In this document: piece after piece, positions 8,540 through 18,678 of the stretch
Layout of the letters: every line of letters starts with the position of its first letter
Position numbering within the stretch: position 1 is the first letter of the stretch
Source of the DNA: Bacteroidota bacterium
Lineage (GTDB): Bacteria; Bacteroidota; Ignavibacteria; UBA10030
DNA length: 64,000 bases
Assembly: GCA_026416125.1 (NCBI GenBank)
Contig: JAOAFT010000009.1
Span: 1 to 64,000, forward strand
Reading direction: 5' to 3'
Notes under the pieces: model-generated
Told to the model about the DNA's origin: nothing
Databases searched by the model: none
What the model saw: only the letters and a program-made list of their open reading frames with translations
Position numbers and translations under genes: made by a program

Positions 8540-11101
8540 TTATTTTTCTTCAGTTTCAGCTTCTACGAGTTCACCTGATTCACGTTTACTTTGCCAGATT
8601 GCCCACCCAATTGCAACGATGGCAATGAGAATAACAACAATACCAATACTGCGAGCGGTTGCAAGGAGATCTTCACTCACCATTGGTGATACAATGTTGT
8701 ACCGGAGCACTAGTCCCAGGGTAAGCAAGCTCACCATATTCATAACTTTGATGAGTGGATTGATAGCAGGACCTGCTGTATCCTTCAATGGATCGCCAAC
8801 GGTGTCACCTGTTACAGCGGCTTTGTGTGCTTCAGATCCTTTGCCACCGTAGATACCATCCTCTATCATTTTCTTCGCATTGTCCCATGCACCACCAGCG
8901 TTTGCCATAAACACAGCAAGCAATTGACCAACGAGGATCATACCTGCGAGGAATCCGCCAAGCGCATAAGGACCGAGAACAAAACCGACGAGGATCGGTG
9001 TCATAATTGCGAGGAAACCAGGGCCAATGAGTTCTTTCTGTGCTGTTGTCGTACAGATGTCAACAACGCGTCCGTAGTTTGGTTTCTTTGTCCCTTGCCA
9101 GATTTCTGGATCACGGAATTGAATTCGGCATTCCTTGACAATGTAGTAAGCTGCACGTCCAACAGCACGAATGAGCATGCTACTAAAGAGAAATGGCACT
9201 GCACCACCAATAAGGAAGCCAATGAAAACAGTTGGATCAGCAACAGTAATTTTTCCAGCTTCCTGTAAGTACTGAGCAACTGTCATTAAGTTAATTTTAT
9301 CTTCGCTCCCAACTGCAATAACTGCAATGAAGCTCGAGAACAACGATACTGCAGCAATTACGGCTGACCCAATTGCAATACCTTTTGTTTCAGCTTTGGT
9401 TGTATTACCAACTGCATCGAGATCAGCAAGTATCTGGCGGGCGCGTTTGTAACTCCCTGGATTCTCTCGCTCCATCTGCTCTTTGTCATAACCCATTTCA
9501 CCGATACCATTTGCATTATCGGCAACAGGTCCGAACACGTCCATGGAAATAGTATTTCCTGTGAGGGTGAGCATGCCTATACCTGTCATGGCAACACCAT
9601 ATGCAATGAACATAGGTGGTGTTCCAGCATACGTTAACACTGAGAGGAAAATTGAGATTGCAATTACAAGAATTGCTGTAACAGTGCTTTCATAACCAAC
9701 TGCGAAACCCTGGATTATGTTGGTTGCGTGACCAGTTTGGCAAGATTTTGCAAGACTCTGAACTGGTGCGTGCTTTGTGTGGGTATAGTAACTTGTGACC
9801 TTATTGAGAGCAATAGCAAGGAAAATGCCGATGAGTGTTGTAATGGCTGGTCGCATATCCAATCCAGGGATACCAAAGTTTGCAATCCAACTCAATTGTG
9901 TAGGATCACCGTTCGGGAAACCAGCTTTTGCCATAGGATTACCAAGAAGGTATGCTGGATCGAATCGGAGGTAGAAAAATCCTAATGCAACGAAGCCAAA
10001 GATACTAATAAGAGAACCAATCCAGAAACCTCGATGTACACTCTTCAGAGCTGTATCCGATGTATCGTTGGCTCCTGCTTTAACAGTGTATGTACTGATG
10101 ATGGAACCAAGAACTCCTATACCGCGGACAAGGAGTGGGAAAATAACACCCTTGTGCCCGAAACTTGCCATCCCAAGAATCATTGCGGAAACAATTGTCA
10201 CTTCATAGCTTTCAAAAATATCTGCAGCCATTCCAGCACAGTCGCCAACGTTATCGCCAACGTTATCGGCTATTGTTGCTGCATTCCGTGGATCATCTTC
10301 AGGTATATCTTTTTCAATCTTTCCTACAAGGTCGGCGCCAACATCGGCTGCTTTTGTGTAAATTCCACCACCAACACGCATGAAAAGTGCGAGGAGTGTT
10401 CCACCAAAACCGAACCCAAGGAGTGCTTCGTATGCTTGTTCACCAAAGACGAGAAAGATGAGGGTTCCACCGAGTAGCCCTAATCCATCGGTAAGCATAC
10501 CCGTGATTGTACCAGTACGATATCCAAGCTGGAGAGCTTCACCATAGCTCCGCTTTGCAGCTGCAGCAACACGAAGATTACCTTGTGTTGCAAGTCGCAT
10601 TCCAACGAATCCAACAAGCCAACTAAATACGGATCCCATGAGGAATGCACCAGCACGACCCCAACGAAATGCATCGACTGTTCCAGTGTAGGTGAAATAA
10701 AGAAAAAGAGTGATGATAATAATCAGTGGTCCAATTTTACGGAATTGTGCAGCGAGATATGCATTGGCACCTTCTCGAACAGCTGCAGCAATCTCCTGCA
10801 TCTTTGGGGTTCCCTTATCGGCATTTCGTACTTGCTTTACAAGAAGTAAGGCGTAGAGCAATCCAGCGATCGCTATTCCAAGAACTGTGAGGAGAGCAAC
10901 AACCTCAATTGTTGTATAACGTGGATCGCTGAAAAGTGCAAAGGGTTTGAAGGATTCATGCGATTGTTCATCTGGTGTTTGCGTGAATCCTGTGTAGGGT
11001 AAGAATACAAATGCTGCAACGAACAGAATCATCATTGCTAAGAGGTAATTCCGTCGAGCAACGGGTGTACTCTTGATGAAGAGATCACGTAAACTATTCA
11101 T
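8540..11101 (-). CDS. hppA: Membrane-bound proton-translocating pyrophosphatase, K+-independent type
   Basis: 853 residues, slightly longer than the usual 660-800 because of an N-terminal extension holding a first hydrophobic segment (about 20-40). It couples PPi hydrolysis to ion pumping across the inner membrane. The family signature DVGADLVGKIEKDIPEDDPRN and the following DNVGDNVGDCAGMAADIFE supply the PPi/Mg2+-binding aspartates; a second acidic site is seen in GDTVGDPLKDTAGPAINPLIK. The K+-dependence site reads GNTTKAETKG at about residue 563: Lys where K+-dependent enzymes have Ala, the mark of the K+-independent H+-pumping subfamily. It is a single-gene unit, divergent from the trp operon and ended by the hairpin at 8475. 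Ion specificity is inferred from that residue only. Confidence 0.97.
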   Translation of the reverse strand: MNSLRDLFIKSTPVARRNYLLAMMILFVAAFVFLPYTGFTQTPDEQSHESFKPFALFSDPRYTTIEVVALLTVLGIAIAGLLYALLLVKQVRNADKGTPKMQEIAAAVREGANAYLAAQFRKIGPLIIIITLFLYFTYTGTVDAFRWGRAGAFLMGSVFSWLVGFVGMRLATQGNLRVAAAAKRSYGEALQLGYRTGTITGMLTDGLGLLGGTLIFLVFGEQAYEALLGFGFGGTLLALFMRVGGGIYTKAADVGADLVGKIEKDIPEDDPRNAATIADNVGDNVGDCAGMAADIFESYEVTIVSAMILGMASFGHKGVIFPLLVRGIGVLGSIISTYTVKAGANDTSDTALKSVHRGFWIGSLISIFGFVALGFFYLRFDPAYLLGNPMAKAGFPNGDPTQLSWIANFGIPGLDMRPAITTLIGIFLAIALNKVTSYYTHTKHAPVQSLAKSCQTGHATNIIQGFAVGYESTVTAILVIAISIFLSVLTYAGTPPMFIAYGVAMTGIGMLTLTGNTISMDVFGPVADNANGIGEMGYDKEQMERENPGSYKRARQILADLDAVGNTTKAETKGIAIGSAVIAAVSLFSSFIAVIAVGSEDKINLMTVAQYLQEAGKITVADPTVFIGFLIGGAVPFLFSSMLIRAVGRAAYYIVKECRIQFRDPEIWQGTKKPNYGRVVDICTTTAQKELIGPGFLAIMTPILVGFVLGPYALGGFLAGMILVGQLLAVFMANAGGAWDNAKKMIEDGIYGGKGSEAHKAAVTGDTVGDPLKDTAGPAINPLIKVMNMVSLLTLGLVLRYNIVSPMVSEDLLATARSIGIVVILIAIVAIGWAIWQSKRESGELVEAETEEK

Positions 11102-11302
11102 ACTTATCCCTATAAATTAGTGAGTGATACGGTTACATAATTTCATACTAAGTATGGAGTGAATTGAACGTAGAGAAGCCACGCGCATCTATTTGCTTCG
11201 CCACGTCAAATCAAACTCGACCTTTAAAATCCTTCCAACTTTCTAAAAAATCAAGTTTGTTTTGTTACTTTTAGAAGAAAATTATTTTTTTGAAATTAAC
11301 AC

Positions 11303-11331
11303 TTGACATTATAAGGAGAATTTACTATAGT
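11303..11331 (+). promoter_or_regulatory. Promoter of the trp operon (housekeeping sigma, -35/-10)
   Basis: TTGACA (11303-11308), a 17-nt spacer and TATAGT (11326-11331), a near-perfect sigma-70-type promoter. Transcription should begin near 11338, about 3 nt before the trpL ATG. It lies in the divergent hppA/trp interval; the remaining bases from 11102 to 11302 show no other element I can name. Confidence 0.8.
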
Positions 11332-11340
11332 AAAGTAGCA

Positions 11341-11421
11341 ATGAGAATCGGTACAACATATCAAAGTTTTACATGGACGTGGTGGTGGCGCTGGCGTGTG
11401 TCCACGCTTCCACCTGCGTGA
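11341..11421 (+). CDS. trpL: trp operon leader peptide, 26 residues with five Trp
   Basis: ATG at 11341, TGA at 11419-11421. Trp codons are codons 12, 14, 15, 16 and 18 (11374-11394), in the string TWTWWWRW, in a proteome where Trp is rare. The short frame sits between a consensus promoter and a terminator, upstream of a complete trp operon. Stalling at these codons would leave the antiterminator segment (11402-11414) free; reaching the stop codon would cover it. No Shine-Dalgarno is at usable distance (AAGGAG at 11313-11318 falls in the promoter spacer, 22 nt away). With a predicted start of transcription near 11338, the peptide is probably translated from a leaderless or nearly leaderless mRNA. 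Confidence 0.9.
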   Translation: MRIGTTYQSFTWTWWWRWRVSTLPPA

Positions 11422-11463
11422 TGTACTTTGATTGTTGATTCAGCAAAAAAGGTGGAAACGTGG
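11381..11463 (+). promoter_or_regulatory. trp attenuator: alternative 1:2 and 2:3 RNA pairings
   Basis: Segment 2 (CCACGCTTCCACC, 11402-11414) can pair with segment 1 in the Trp-codon stretch (GGTGG at 11381-11388 and GCGTG at 11394-11398) or with segment 3 (GGTGGAAACGTGG, 11451-11463; 12 of 13 positions match). Segment 3 is also the 5' arm of the terminator. Low tryptophanyl-tRNA stalls the ribosome on segment 1, 2:3 forms and transcription continues. High tryptophan lets the ribosome reach the TGA at 11421, cover segment 2 and allow the 3:4 terminator. This is the E. coli-type logic, read directly from the pairings. Confidence 0.88.
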
Positions 11464-11485
11464 ACTGAGCGTTCCCACCTTTTTT
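11445..11485 (+). terminator. trp attenuator terminator (segments 3:4)
   Basis: AAAAAAGGTGGAAACG (11445-11460) pairs with CGTTCCCACCTTTTTT (11470-11485), one mismatch, 9-nt loop, with the T run in the 3' arm. It lies 140 nt before trpB2. The 5' arm overlaps antiterminator segment 3, so the two structures exclude each other. Confidence 0.9.
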
Positions 11486-11624
11486 GTTGTACATCCTTCC
11501 GAAAGTGTGGGAACCTCACCAAAAGAATGAATTACCACTGAGATAAGATTACAACTAATAATTAATTCCCATTGAACGCTGAAGCGTTTAATGTGTATGT
11601 ATTCATTCAATTTAGGAGGAACCT

Positions 11625-12932
11625 ATGGAACGTAAAATTGTACTCGCAGAAAAAGATATACCAACCCATTACTACAATCTACTTGCAGATTTACCGACAC
11701 CGCTTGATCCACCACTTCACCCTGCCACAAAGCAACCTGTTTCACCACAGGATTTAGCTGTTATTTTTCCTATGGAGCTGATTAAACAGGAAGTAAGCTC
11801 AGAGCGGTATATTGAAATACCTGAGGAGGTCCGGAAAGCGTATACAAAGTACCGACCGACACCGCTTTATCGAGCACTCGAATTGGAGAAAGCACTCGAT
11901 ACACCTGCCCACATTTATTACAAATACGAAGGGGTAAGCCCAGCAGGGAGCCACAAGTTGAATACGGCACTTGCACAAGCGTACTACAATAAGCAAGCAG
12001 GGATCAAGCGTATTGCAACCGAAACAGGCGCTGGACAATGGGGAAGTTCGTTAGCACTTGCTTGTAAGGAGTTTGGTCTCCAGTGTAAAGTGTACATGGT
12101 AAAAGTGAGTTATGAACAGAAGCCATATCGTCGGTCAATGATCCAAGCATGGGGGAGTGAAGTTGTTCCAAGTCCAAGCCCAGACACAAAAGCAGGTCGT
12201 GATATTTTAGCTAAAGATCCGAACTCACGCGGAAGTCTTGGAATTGCCATTAGCGAAGCCGTCGAAGATGCTGCTTCTCGTGAAGATACAAACTATTCTT
12301 TGGGAAGTGTATTAAACCATGTTTTGCTCCATCAAACAGTGATAGGGTTAGAAGCGAAGAAGCAAATGGAGATTGCAGGCGAGTACCCAGATATTGTTAT
12401 TGGATGTGTTGGTGGGGGGTCGAATTTTGGAGGATTAGCACTCCCCTTTATTAAGGATAAGTTCGATGGCAAGAACATTCGTGCAATTGCTGTTGAACCG
12501 ACTTCGTGTCCATCACTTACAGGAGGTGAGTACCGGTATGATTTTGGGGACGTTGCTGGTTTGACACCGCTCCTTTTGATGTACACGCTTGGACATGACT
12601 TTATGCCACCATCAATTCATGCTGGCGGATTACGATACCATGGTATGTCACCACTTGTAAGTAAATTGTATAAAGAAAAGTATATAGAAGCGCAAGCATA
12701 CCCCCAAACGGAGGTTTTTGAAGCAGGGGTTCTTTTTGCTCGCACTGAAGGGATTATTCCAGCACCCGAATCAGCCCATGCTATCAAAGCAGCAATTGAA
12801 GAAGCAAGGAGAGCAAAAGTAGAGGGGACAAAAAAGATTATTCTCTTTAATCTGAGTGGTCATGGATTACTCGATTTGAGTGCGTACGACGCTTACTTTG
12901 CAGGTCAATTGAATAACGGAAACAACAAATGA
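11625..12932 (+). CDS. trpB2: Tryptophan synthase beta-like, TrpB2 type
   Basis: 435 residues, PLP-dependent, longer than the TrpB1 copy at 17.5 kb as is usual for TrpB2. The PLP lysine lies in [16 protein letters not shown], the phosphate loop in [11 protein letters not shown], and late motifs in [10 protein letters not shown] and NLSGHG. TrpB2 converts indole and serine to tryptophan, generally without tight TrpA binding, and may salvage free indole or act as a serine deaminase. The ATG at 11625 has an excellent site (AGGAGG, about 11612). It is the first structural gene after the attenuator and so receives the full Trp-responsive control. An operon with both TrpB2 and TrpB1 is noteworthy; the exact in vivo role of this copy cannot be read from sequence. 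Confidence 0.95.
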
Positions 12933-12943
12933 GAAAAAATACG

Positions 12944-12982
12944 TGGAGTGTGGTGGGATGAAGTATATACTCACCACCTCCA
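12944..12982 (+). other. Intercistronic hairpin between trpB2 and trpE
   Basis: TGGAG (12944-12948) and GTGGTG (12950-12955), separated by one bulged T, pair with CACCACCTCCA (12972-12982) around a 16-nt loop. No T run follows, so it is not an intrinsic terminator. It ends 9 nt before the trpE ribosome site (AAGGGAG, 12991) and could stabilise or process the mRNA or set trpE expression relative to trpB2. Confidence 0.45.
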
Positions 12983-13004
12983 TTGTAAAAAAGGGAGCAT
13001 AGGT

Positions 13005-14495
13005 ATGATTTCATTCGAGCTTTTTAAAGAGGCAAGCACTCAGTATAACGTTATTCCCTTAACGGAGACGTTTTTAGCTGATACGCATACCCCAGTAACA
13101 CTGTATAGGGCACTTCGGCAGAAAGGTGAAATTTCATTTTTACTTGAGAGTGCCGAAAGCAATGAACGATTAGGAAGATTTTCTTTTGTTGGTTGTAAGC
13201 CACTTTTTACGCTCGCGCTCCGTGATGGGGTTGTTTGGATTAATAAAGGTGGAAAAGAAGAACGTATAGAAGGTCACTTAATTGATGTAATACGAAATCT
13301 AATGTCTACGTACACCCAATACCCTCTTCCTCAATTAGAAGGATTTTCTGGTGGGCTTCTTGGATATGTTGGTTACGATACCGTGACACAGTTTGAAAAA
13401 ATTCCACTTCCAGTAAGGAAACCGTACGTTCAACCAGATGCACTTTTTGGATTTTTCCTTTCGGTTGTTCGCTACGACCACAGGAAACAACTTATAACGA
13501 TTATCCACAATGTTATTGTAAAAGACGGTATAACACTTCGACAACAGTATGAAGAAGGTCGGTATGCACTCGAATTTCTGAAAGAACAAGTACTTGCTTC
13601 GCACAATGGACCATCATTTTTTGAATATGAGAAACCAAAGTACACGGAAGATGATGAAAGAAAATTTGAAGAGATGGTCGAAAAAGCAAAGCAGTATATT
13701 TACGATGGTGATATTTTTCAGGTAGTTCTTTCCAGAAGAATGACGCTCAAGTATCGAGGAGATACATTTCCTGTGTACCGTGCTCTTCGTTTAATTAACC
13801 CTTCACCATATTTGTTTTACATTGAGTTTGGTACAATTACATTGCTTGGATCTTCCCCTGAAATACTCGTGCGTGTAACAAATAGACACGTTGAAGTTTT
13901 TCCAATTGCTGGAACGCGGAAGCGTGGCAGTACAATCGAAGATGACATTAAACTCGAGCGTGAGTTGCTTGCAGATGAAAAGGAGCTTGCAGAACATCAC
14001 ATGCTCATAGACTTAGGTCGGAACGATGTTGGGAGAGTATGTACCGTTGGAAGTGTCCATGTTCCAGTTAATAAACGGATTGATAAGTATTCGCATGTAA
14101 TGCATATCGTTTCCGAGGTACATGGCACATTGCGTCCTGAATGTACAAGTGTTGATGCTCTCCAAGCATGTTTTCCTGCTGGAACAGTAACGGGTGCGCC
14201 AAAAGTTCGAGCAATGGAAATAATCAGTGAATTAGAAGAAGTACGCCGCTGTGTGTACGCTGGTGCTGTGGGATATATTGGTTTTGGCGATTCCTTAGAT
14301 ATGTGCATAGCGATTCGCACACTTGTTGCAACTGAAAACCACATTCACATTCAAGCAGGTGCTGGAATTGTTGCCGATTCACGACCAAAGAGAGAATACC
14401 TTGAAACACAGGCGAAAGCCAGTGCTTTGCTTGAAGCAGTACATCTCGCTGCATCAGATTTTAATTTAACACTACTCCGACGAGGTGTTGCATGA
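13005..14495 (+). CDS. trpE: Anthranilate synthase component I
   Basis: 496 residues; chorismate to anthranilate using ammonia supplied by TrpG. The start is ATG 13005, with AAGGGAG at 12991-12997; an in-frame GTG at 12948 would run through the intercistronic hairpin and is less likely. The N-terminal region has the tryptophan-feedback pocket motif FLLESAESNERLGRFSF (about residue 44). The catalytic C-terminal half shows IFQVVLSRR, GSSPEILVR, PIAGTRKRG, ELLADEKELAEHHMLIDLGRNDVGRV and GTVTGAPKVRAMEII, all typical of chorismate-using enzymes. The stop overlaps the trpG start (ATGA), implying translational coupling of the two subunits. Confidence 0.97.
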   Translation: MISFELFKEASTQYNVIPLTETFLADTHTPVTLYRALRQKGEISFLLESAESNERLGRFSFVGCKPLFTLALRDGVVWINKGGKEERIEGHLIDVIRNLMSTYTQYPLPQLEGFSGGLLGYVGYDTVTQFEKIPLPVRKPYVQPDALFGFFLSVVRYDHRKQLITIIHNVIVKDGITLRQQYEEGRYALEFLKEQVLASHNGPSFFEYEKPKYTEDDERKFEEMVEKAKQYIYDGDIFQVVLSRRMTLKYRGDTFPVYRALRLINPSPYLFYIEFGTITLLGSSPEILVRVTNRHVEVFPIAGTRKRGSTIEDDIKLERELLADEKELAEHHMLIDLGRNDVGRVCTVGSVHVPVNKRIDKYSHVMHIVSEVHGTLRPECTSVDALQACFPAGTVTGAPKVRAMEIISELEEVRRCVYAGAVGYIGFGDSLDMCIAIRTLVATENHIHIQAGAGIVADSRPKREYLETQAKASALLEAVHLAASDFNLTLLRRGVA

Positions 14496-15064
14496 TCGTT
14501 GTACTCGACAACTATGACTCATTTACCTATAATCTGGTTCAAATTGTTGGTACCCTTGTAAGCGAAGTACGCGTCTTTCGCAACGACGCAATTACAGTTG
14601 ATGAATTAGACCAGCTTCGGCCCCATGGTATAATTATTTCCCCCGGACCGGGAAGACCTGAGGATGCAGGTATTTCAATGGAGGTTATTCGTGTTCTAGG
14701 TGATAGGATACCAATACTTGGTGTTTGTTTGGGGCATCAAGCAATTGGTGCTGTTTATGGTGCTTCAATTGTCCATGCACCAGAATTAGTTCATGGTAAA
14801 ACATCAAAGATATACCACACTAACCACTTTCTTTTTCATAATATGGACAATCCATTCGAAGCTGGGAGATACCATTCCCTTGTTATTGATAAAAATTCAT
14901 TACCACCTGGATTGCGAGTAATTGCTACCACAAGCGATGGTACTATTATGGCTGTTGAACATGAAAAGTATCCAGTTTTTGGTATTCAGTTTCATCCAGA
15001 ATCGATTTTAACACCAGCGGGACCAACTATTCTTGCGAATTGGGTAGGAGGATTATACCAATGA
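14492..15064 (+). CDS. trpG: Anthranilate synthase component II, glutamine amidotransferase
   Basis: 190 residues, class I amidotransferase that releases ammonia from glutamine for TrpE. The catalytic triad is visible: Cys79 in GVCLGHQAIG, and His168 and Glu170 in QFHPESI. The N-terminal DNYDSFTYNLVQ and SPGPGRPEDAG oxyanion region are canonical. A free-standing subunit, not fused to TrpD as in enterics. It overlaps trpE by 4 nt and trpD by 4 nt. Confidence 0.97.
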   Translation: MIVVLDNYDSFTYNLVQIVGTLVSEVRVFRNDAITVDELDQLRPHGIIISPGPGRPEDAGISMEVIRVLGDRIPILGVCLGHQAIGAVYGASIVHAPELVHGKTSKIYHTNHFLFHNMDNPFEAGRYHSLVIDKNSLPPGLRVIATTSDGTIMAVEHEKYPVFGIQFHPESILTPAGPTILANWVGGLYQ

Positions 15065-17487: not shown

Positions 17488-18678
17488 ATGAAATATGGGT
17501 TACCGGATAAACGAGGGTACTTTGGTGCGTACGGTGGACGATTCGTACCAGAAACTTTAATTGAACCATTGAGGCGTTTGGAGAAGCTCTATACTCGTAT
17601 GAAGAGAGATCCCGCTTTCACCAACGAGTACTATAGTATCCTTCGGGAGTATGCTGGACGTCCGACACCTCTTACATTTGCAGAGCGATTGACAGCATAC
17701 TATGGACGAGCATCTATCTTTCTGAAACGAGAAGACCTCTGTCACACAGGTGCACATAAAATTAATAATGTTGTTGGGCAAATTCTTCTCGCTGTTCGAT
17801 CCAAGAAAAAACGGATTATTGCAGAAACTGGTGCAGGTCAGCACGGAGTTGCCACCGCAACTGTAGCAGCTCGGTTTGGATTACAGTGTGTTGTGTATAT
17901 GGGGGAAGAAGATATGCACCGTCAACAACTCAATGTCTATCGGATGAAAATGCTTGGTGCAGAGGTTATTCCTGTCACTAGTGGAAGTCGGACGCTAAAA
18001 GACGCAACGAGTGAAGCAATTCGTGACTGGGTAACGAATGTAAATGATACATTCTACGTTATCGGTTCGGTGGTAGGCCCACATCCGTACCCGATGATGG
18101 TACGTGATTTCCAAGCAATCATAGGGAAAGAAGTACGGAAGCAGCTTCGTACTCTCAACACAGGGAAATCGCTTTACCTTATTGCATGTGTTGGAGGTGG
18201 AAGTAATGCTGCTGGATTGTTCTATCCTTTTCTCCAGAGTACAGCTCGTATGTATGGTGTTGAAGCAGCAGGGTTAGGACTTGATACTGATAAACACGCT
18301 GCAACACTTGCAAAAGGAATCCCTGGAGTTCTCCATGGTTCCTTAAGTTACGTGCTGCAGGATGATGATGGACAAATCGCTCTCGCGCACTCGATTTCTG
18401 CAGGACTTGATTATCCTGGTGTGGGACCTGAACATTGTTATCTGAAGGAGAGTGGAAGAGTGCAGTACCATGCTGTTACCGATGAAGAAGCACTAAAAGC
18501 TGCAGCACTCCTTGCAAAATTAGAAGGAATTATTCCGGCACTTGAATCAGCCCATGCCATTGCATTTCTTGAGAAACTCATGCCATGTACGAAGAAGGGT
18601 GAATGTGTAGTGGTGAACCTTTCGGGTCGTGGTGATAAAGACATGCAGACATTTATGGAAAGGTTAACATATGAGTAG
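17488..18678 (+). CDS. trpB: Tryptophan synthase beta chain, TrpB1 type
   Basis: 396 residues, the canonical beta subunit. The PLP lysine lies in [19 protein letters not shown]; also present are [17 protein letters not shown], the phosphate loop [26 protein letters not shown] and [13 protein letters not shown]. It condenses indole delivered through the tunnel from TrpA with serine. It lies 5 nt after trpF and overlaps trpA by 8 nt, as expected for the alpha/beta complex partner. The second beta gene of the operon. Confidence 0.97.

What the first reader, a model, noticed from the sequence alone, without database searches (positions are those of the whole stretch)
11303..11485. Complete E. coli-type trp attenuator in an FCB-group bacterium
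The sequence directly shows all parts: promoter, 26-codon leader peptide with five Trp codons (12, 14, 15, 16, 18), segment 2 (11402-11414) able to pair with segment 1 or with segment 3 (12 of 13 bases), and a terminator 11445-11485 whose 5' arm is segment 3. The Trp codons lie on segment 1, and the peptide stop at 11421 would place a ribosome over segment 2. Leader-peptide attenuation of trp is best described in Proteobacteria; its use here implies independent origin or wide distribution.
Basis: partly seen in the sequence, partly recalled or inferred. Interest (0 to 1): 0.8.

Follow-up and report, generated by a model that had tools for sequence, protein, structure and literature searches.

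The report
Tryptophan-operon attenuator widespread in Bacteroidota
The tryptophan genes of this Ignavibacteria-like bacterium are preceded by a working-looking version of the classic E. coli switch, in which a ribosome stalling on tryptophan codons decides whether transcription goes on; relatives across the class keep it, most sampled relatives across the phylum carry a similar leader, and it seems to have an extra RNA segment whose job is still unproven.

Summary
At 11341-11421 a 26-codon ORF carries five Trp codons. Segment 2 (11402-11414) can pair with segment 1 or with segment 3 (12 of 13 bases). Terminator 11445-11485 uses segment 3 as its 5' arm and lies ahead of trpB2-E-G-D-C-F-B-A. The leader folds at z = -6.0. 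It is conserved upstream of trpB2 across the class, and the antiterminator helix 2:3 has double-sided changes at 8 of 12 pairs (0 of 500 shuffles reach the observed covariation score). The genome has no TRAP; its only TrpR-family protein is the hisG-linked YerC type. Similar WWW leaders precede trpE in most sampled Bacteroidota families, but not the two Chlorobia-like ones. So the mechanism is known and its spread in this phylum is wide.

Three features differ from E. coli. The leader ORF appears leaderless (no Shine-Dalgarno; start codon a median 7 nt after the -10 box). The first gene is trpB2. A fifth segment (11501-11517) complements segment 4 and, weakly here, the trpB2 Shine-Dalgarno. 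In 20 of 41 relatives a second terminator-like hairpin follows. This hints at a two-stage relay, but covariation and switch simulations do not prove it.

The parts
11303..11331 (+). sigma-70-type promoter: TTGACA 11303-11308, 17 nt, TATAGT 11326-11331
   Evidence: consensus scan, 11 of 12 positions; same layout in most relatives
11321..11334 (.). perfect 14-bp palindrome TTTACTATAGTAAA over the -10 box; possible operator, unproven
   Evidence: among fetched loci otherwise only in G003 (L008/L035/L139)
11341..11421 (+). trpL leader ORF, 26 codons, MRIGTTYQSFTWTWWWRWRVSTLPPA*; probably translated from a leaderless mRNA
   Evidence: WWW leader ORFs in most relatives with a recognisable leader
11374..11394 (+). 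regulatory Trp codons 12, 14, 15, 16, 18
11377..11395 (+). segment 1 (Trp codons themselves; pairs with segment 2)
   Evidence: MFE fold
11402..11414 (+). segment 2 (pairs with 1 or 3)
   Evidence: covariation of 2:3
11451..11463 (+). segment 3 (antiterminator partner of 2; 5' arm of terminator)
11445..11485 (+). intrinsic terminator T1 (3:4 plus U tract)
11470..11479 (+). segment 4 (3' arm of T1)
11501..11517 (+). segment 5: GTGGGAAC (11507-11514) complements segment 4 (11471-11478); CCTC (11514-11517) complements GAGG of the trpB2 SD (11616-11619)
   Evidence: 4:5 -18.2 kcal/mol, p 0.005; 5:SD p 0.085 in this locus; sequence GTGGGAACCTC footprinted in the family; fold probabilities
11615..11619 (+). 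Shine-Dalgarno GGAGG of trpB2
11625..12932 (+). trpB2, first structural gene of the operon
   Evidence: NF009057 753.7 bits, TIGR01415 685.4 bits
12948..14495 (+). trpE
   Evidence: TIGR00564 537.7 bits, above cut-off
14492..15064 (+). trpG
   Evidence: TIGR00566
15040..16074 (+). trpD (start codon as called mechanically; the true start may be internal)
   Evidence: TIGR01245
16071..16868 (+). trpC
   Evidence: NF001377
16859..17482 (+). trpF
   Evidence: NF002298, best match but just under its cut-off
17488..18678 (+). trpB (TrpB1)
   Evidence: TIGR00263 598.4 bits
18671..19471 (+). trpA
   Evidence: TIGR00262

Best explanation
This is a ribosome-mediated transcription attenuator that senses Trp-tRNA and controls the trpB2-E-G-D-C-F-B-A operon. 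RNA polymerase starts a few bases before the ATG of trpL and a ribosome loads on the near-leaderless message (inferred). When Trp-tRNA is plentiful the ribosome runs to the stop codon at 11419-11421, covers segment 2, and segments 3 and 4 form terminator T1. When Trp-tRNA is scarce the ribosome halts on Trp codons 12-15, keeps segment 1 from pairing, segment 2 captures segment 3 before segment 4 is made, and transcription runs into trpB2. In transcripts that have passed T1, segment 4 can pair with segment 5; since segment 5 is made only after the T1 decision, this pairing can act only on a later step. Shown here: anatomy, conservation, covariation of 2:3 and 3:4. Inferred: ribosome behaviour, Trp response, role of segment 5.
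For: Anatomy read directly. Strong fold, z = -6.0. WWW leader ORF in the family and class, ahead of trpB2. Antiterminator 2:3: 8 of 12 pairs changed on both sides, 0 of 500 shuffles reach the covariation score, no slid register comes near; its own complementarity beats dinucleotide shuffles, Fisher P 1.7e-17 over 27 genera. T1 stem 3:4 also covaries, and two genomes (L118, L119) carry the whole set with opposite base polarity. Masking the transcript up to a ribosome at Trp 15 gives, before segment 4 is made, the 2:3 fold (-28.0); masking around the stop codon gives T1. All genes downstream are trp genes. No TRAP; the only PF01371 protein is YerC/YecD type next to hisG, TrpR model far below its cut-off.
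Against: No transcript, reporter or tryptophan data. At equilibrium the T1 fold is more stable than 2:3 once segment 4 is out (about -35 against -28), so antitermination must be kinetic, and a stall at codon 16 or 18 would favour T1 in the full-length fold. In some relatives the 2:3 helix is weak on its own (L004 p 0.24, L012 p 0.85, L019 p 0.44). Some trpB2 operons in the class have no recognisable leader.
Confidence: 0.93

Rival explanations
1. Two-stage version of the same attenuator: after T1 is bypassed, pairing of segment 4 with segment 5 keeps a second gate open. In many relatives the gate is a second terminator (segment 5 with a segment 6); in the window's family it would be the trpB2 Shine-Dalgarno, which segment 5 can cover when segment 4 is locked in T1.
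For: 4:5 complementarity beyond shuffles, 14 of 27 genera at p<=0.05, Fisher P 8.9e-16; 5:SD Fisher P 1.2e-6. 20 of 41 loci have a second terminator-like hairpin, in most cases 8-34 nt after T1 and with a 5' arm that also pairs with segment 4; an unconditional second terminator would shut the operon for good. Segment 5 is kept where no second terminator exists (window, L004, L009, L165, L168). Genomes without segment 5 (L151, L162, L177, L180) have SD GGAGGTTA instead of GGAGGTTCAC. Window fold: GAGG of the SD paired to segment 5 at 0.92-0.98 when T1 stands, 0.43-0.55 when the ribosome stalls at codons 12-15.
Against: Within the window's family 4:5 shows no covariation beyond shuffles and it is weak in L007, L012, L014. 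Across all loci, freeing segment 4 does not open the SD on average (mean change -0.03, 7 genera up, 7 down), and the whole-transcript simulation gave SD less open when stalled in 16 loci, more open in 3. 5:SD in the window is only p 0.085. Segment 5 resembles segment 3, so 4:5 could partly follow from duplication of a terminator. The second hairpins of L016, L017, L019 and L119 are less clear-cut and may be chance calls.
Confidence: 0.3
2. Segment 5 and the second hairpins are leftovers of a duplicated terminator with no regulatory role; the system is a plain E. coli-like attenuator.
For: In f14 and f27 genomes the second hairpin repeats the outer stem of the first (GCCGTG...CACGGC). No covariation for 4:5 in the window's family.
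Against: Complementarity kept without a segment 6, joint presence/absence of segment 5 and the extended SD, and the cost of an unconditional second terminator.
Confidence: 0.45
3. Direct RNA sensing (T-box, tryptophan riboswitch or TRAP-like protein) with the ORF a by-product.
For: Conserved structured leader with terminator ahead of trp genes.
Against: No Rfam family reaches threshold in 10001-14000; no TRAP gene; the conserved thing is the run of Trp codons in frame while the rest of the peptide changes.
Confidence: 0.03
4. trpL encodes a small functional protein and the hairpin is an ordinary terminator.
For: peTrpL of Sinorhizobium meliloti acts in trans as well (PMC7298713).
Against: Outside the Trp run the sequence and length vary; the coding sequence is tied up in covarying RNA helices.
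Confidence: 0.03

Closest known systems
E. coli trp attenuator (trpL-trpEDCBA; Yanofsky)
   Same: Trp-codon leader ORF overlapping segment 1, stop codon placed so that a ribosome covers segment 2, mutually exclusive 1:2, 2:3, 3:4, U-tract terminator, trp biosynthetic operon downstream.
   Different: 26 codons with five Trp codons (E. coli: 14 codons, two Trp, from memory); no Shine-Dalgarno before trpL; trpB2 first; no TrpR found in the genome; extra segment 5; no match to Rfam models.
Sinorhizobium meliloti trpLE(G) attenuator
   Same: Leaderless trpL ORF, attenuation without TrpR repression (PMC7298713).
   Different: Different phylum, operon and leader sequence; no trans role tested here.
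Leader-peptide attenuation clues in Flavobacterium psychrophilum amino-acid operons
   Same: Same phylum in the broad sense; authors report strong clues for leader-peptide attenuation upstream of amino-acid biosynthesis operons (PMC9723704).
   Different: No operon, sequence or structure is detailed in the passages found in the main text; the paper is about Flavobacteriaceae.
E. coli/Salmonella his attenuator (six-segment alternation A:B, C:D, E:F against B:C, D:E; from memory)
   Same: If segments 4:5 and 5:6 are real, the order of alternating stems is like his; L116 has a U tract only on its second hairpin.
   Different: The window has a terminator at 3:4 and none at 5:6.
B. subtilis trp operon: TRAP terminator plus trpE SD-blocking hairpin (from memory)
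   Same: Would be the nearest parallel for a transcriptional plus translational double gate.
   Different: Protein-sensed, not ribosome-sensed; no TRAP gene here.

Membership tests
Ribosome-mediated (leader-peptide) trp transcription attenuator | Short ORF with clustered codons for the regulated amino acid, upstream of its biosynthetic operon | tested here: met
   conserved in relatives
Ribosome-mediated (leader-peptide) trp transcription attenuator | Intrinsic terminator between leader ORF and first gene | tested here: met
   covariation
Ribosome-mediated (leader-peptide) trp transcription attenuator | Antiterminator 2:3 mutually exclusive with the terminator | tested here: met
Ribosome-mediated (leader-peptide) trp transcription attenuator | Protector/pause hairpin 1:2 over the regulatory codons | tested here: met
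   MFE fold of the free leader; not tested for covariation
Ribosome-mediated (leader-peptide) trp transcription attenuator | Stop codon placed so that a terminating ribosome masks segment 2 | tested here: met
   segment 2 ends 4 nt before the stop codon; similar offset (about -19..-6 from the end of the ORF) in many relatives, just after the stop in the short-peptide clade
Ribosome-mediated (leader-peptide) trp transcription attenuator | Read-through rises when charged Trp-tRNA falls | not testable with these tools
   needs experiment
Rfam Trp_leader or any described RNA family | Covariance-model match | tested here: not met
   no family above threshold
E. coli-type dual control with TrpR | TrpR repressor gene | tested here: not met
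   only a YerC/YecD (HisR-type) protein beside hisG; genome 98.65% complete
TRAP-controlled trp operon | mtrB (PF02081) | tested here: not met
Two-stage relay (4:5 against 5:6 or 5:SD) | Covariation of 4:5 | tested here: inconclusive
   complementarity beyond shuffles across the class but no covariation in the window's family
Two-stage relay (4:5 against 5:6 or 5:SD) | SD opens when segment 4 is free | tested here: inconclusive
   seen in the window, L004, L005 but not on average

The most novel reading that the evidence does not exclude
A ribosome-sensed attenuator with two serial gates: the position of one stalled ribosome on a leaderless ORF is passed along a chain of strand exchanges (2:3, then 4:5) to a second output past the terminator, which is a second terminator in many Ignavibacteria and blockage of the trpB2 Shine-Dalgarno in the window's family.
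Probability: 0.28. Interest if true: 0.65.

Novelty: new member of a known kind. Interest (0 to 1): 0.42.

Why it matters
Leader-peptide attenuation is usually taught as a proteobacterial (and actinobacterial) device; Naville and Gautheret (2010, PMC2965389) knew of none outside those two phyla before theirs. Here it appears as a broadly distributed way of controlling tryptophan synthesis in Bacteroidota, with aligned families in which the decisive helix covaries. That gives a clean comparative data set to ask how such switches arise, how they work on mRNAs without a Shine-Dalgarno, and whether they can drive more than one output.

Tried and rejected
Rfam scan gave only chance matches. Own-genome search for His-codon runs was uninformative (27 hits against 14 for the reversed-pattern control), as was the TGG-run pattern (39 against 28). 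First script on minus-strand loci printed wrong sequence for L004, L015-L017, L019 and was redone. T1 of L176 was mis-called (its second hairpin was taken), so L176 is left out of the second-terminator count; it stayed in the 27-genus statistics, where it does not help 4:5 or 5:SD. The SD-gating idea was tested three ways and is not supported in general, only in the window and a few close relatives. Lopatovskaya et al. 2010 (Mol. Biol. 44:128), a broad attenuation survey, is not held, so how far it already covers this phylum is unchecked.

Full report
CHECK. The free leader folds into 1:2 plus the terminator at -65.1 kcal/mol, z = -6.0. Downstream genes are trpB2-E-G-D-C-F-B-A; upstream and divergent is a membrane pyrophosphatase gene.

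WHERE.

CONSERVATION. Of same-family genomes with trpB2 and enough upstream DNA, those with a close trpB2 (65% identity or more) all carry a Trp-rich leader ORF, mostly WWWRW; the more distant trpB2 copies (about 50% identity) do not. The leader continues in other families of the order (L113-L119, L127) and of the class, though many order and class members with trpB2 lack it. Peptide sequence outside the Trp run drifts.

COVARIATION. On 16 aligned leaders the 2:3 helix has both-sided changes at 8 of 12 pairs, 80.7% paired against 72.3% in shuffles, covariation score 0.391 against 0.222 (0 of 500), and registers slid by 1-3 columns fall to 37-45% paired. The 3:4 helix has 4 such pairs. Across 27 genera (median p per genus) the 2:3 complementarity gives Fisher P 1.7e-17 against dinucleotide shuffles. 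L118 and L119 have the set with reversed polarity: in L118 segment 2 is GTGGGTT, segment 3 AACCCAC and the terminator ends in GTGGGTTTT.

MECHANISM. With the transcript masked up to a ribosome at Trp codons 12-16 and RNA made to 11468, 2:3 forms (-24.7 to -28.8); at codon 18 it does not; with a ribosome at the stop it does not. Once 11490 is reached T1 is more stable in all states, so the switch must be decided kinetically, as coupling of polymerase and ribosome implies (inference).

LEADERLESS ORF. In 35 of the 41 loci where the script found a promoter the start codon lies 4-12 nt after the -10 element (median 7 over all 41), and none has a Shine-Dalgarno in the presumptive transcript, whereas 41 of 42 trpB2 starts do. 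Four more have longer presumptive 5' UTRs (17-25 nt) but no Shine-Dalgarno is seen; the promoter call failed or fell inside the ORF in L014, L127 and L164. Leaderless trpL is known in Sinorhizobium meliloti (PMC7298713), so this is a precedent shared, not a first.

SEGMENT 5. Downstream of T1 the family keeps GTGGGAACCTC(C) (11507-11517; alignment A2). It complements segment 4 (window -18.2 kcal/mol, p 0.005) and its CCTC complements the trpB2 SD. Over the class, 4:5 is beyond shuffles in 14 of 27 genera (Fisher 8.9e-16) and 5:SD in 9 of 27 (Fisher 1.2e-6); these P values treat genera as independent and so overstate. In 20 of 41 loci a second terminator-like hairpin follows, in most 8-34 nt after T1 and with a 5' arm that can pair with segment 4. 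Against: no covariation of 4:5 in the family, and simulated release of the SD is not general. I leave this as a lead, about 0.3.

WIDER SPREAD. Of the 30 trpE loci drawn first across the phylum, 28 have a leader ORF with a WWW or WAWFW-like run about 140-400 nt upstream; the two without are the window's own trpE, which sits inside the trpB2-led operon, and L229. Among 40 further trpE upstream regions, Trp-rich leaders appear in families f33, f36, f38, f40-f42, f44, f45, f48, f49 and f14 (weaker candidates in f52 and f53), and not in f35, f37, f50, f51, f32, f39, nor in the f6, f12 and f1 genomes sampled. f37 and f35 contain genomes whose lengths (2,154,946 and 3,293,456 bp) I recall as Chlorobaculum tepidum and Chloroherpeton thalassium. 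Terminators and pairing were not checked for these trpE leaders.

KNOWN OR NEW. Mechanism: known. Phylum: leader-peptide attenuation of amino-acid operons was already suspected in Flavobacterium psychrophilum (PMC9723704), and a 2010 survey by Lopatovskaya et al. that I could not read may cover it. No held paper found describes it for trp in Ignavibacteria. I therefore file it as a new member of a known kind, with a possible new variant in segment 5.

Noticed in passing
window 11321-11334: Perfect palindrome TTTACTATAGTAAA across the -10 box; among fetched loci shared only with the G003 genome (L008). Looks like an operator, but no TrpR was found.
   Followed up: partly
window 11570-11593: 10-bp hairpin CATTGAACGCTGAAGCGTTTAATG just upstream of the trpB2 Shine-Dalgarno.
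   Followed up: no
L116: First hairpin has no U tract; only the second hairpin (5:6) looks like a terminator, a his-like order of segments.
   Followed up: partly
L199, L200, L207, L209, L210: Leaders with TGGTGGCC near the stop codon and, in some, a GGCCTC...GAGGCC repeat over the Trp codons, with no terminator seen; possibly a translational version of the same sensor.
   Followed up: no
L159, L161, L181 (G201, G338, G363): TTG-started leaders with TWPWRR and no terminator ahead of trpB2.
   Followed up: no
L118, L119: Complete attenuator with reversed base polarity of segments 2, 3 and 4.
   Followed up: partly
L220 (G009), L221 (G070): These genomes have separate trpB2 and trpE loci, each with its own WWW leader, so two trp attenuators per genome.
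   Followed up: partly
L289 1480-1776: YerC/YecD (HisR-type) TrpR-family gene directly upstream of a hisG-like gene in the window's genome; HisR was described mainly from Firmicutes (PMC9413887).
   Followed up: partly
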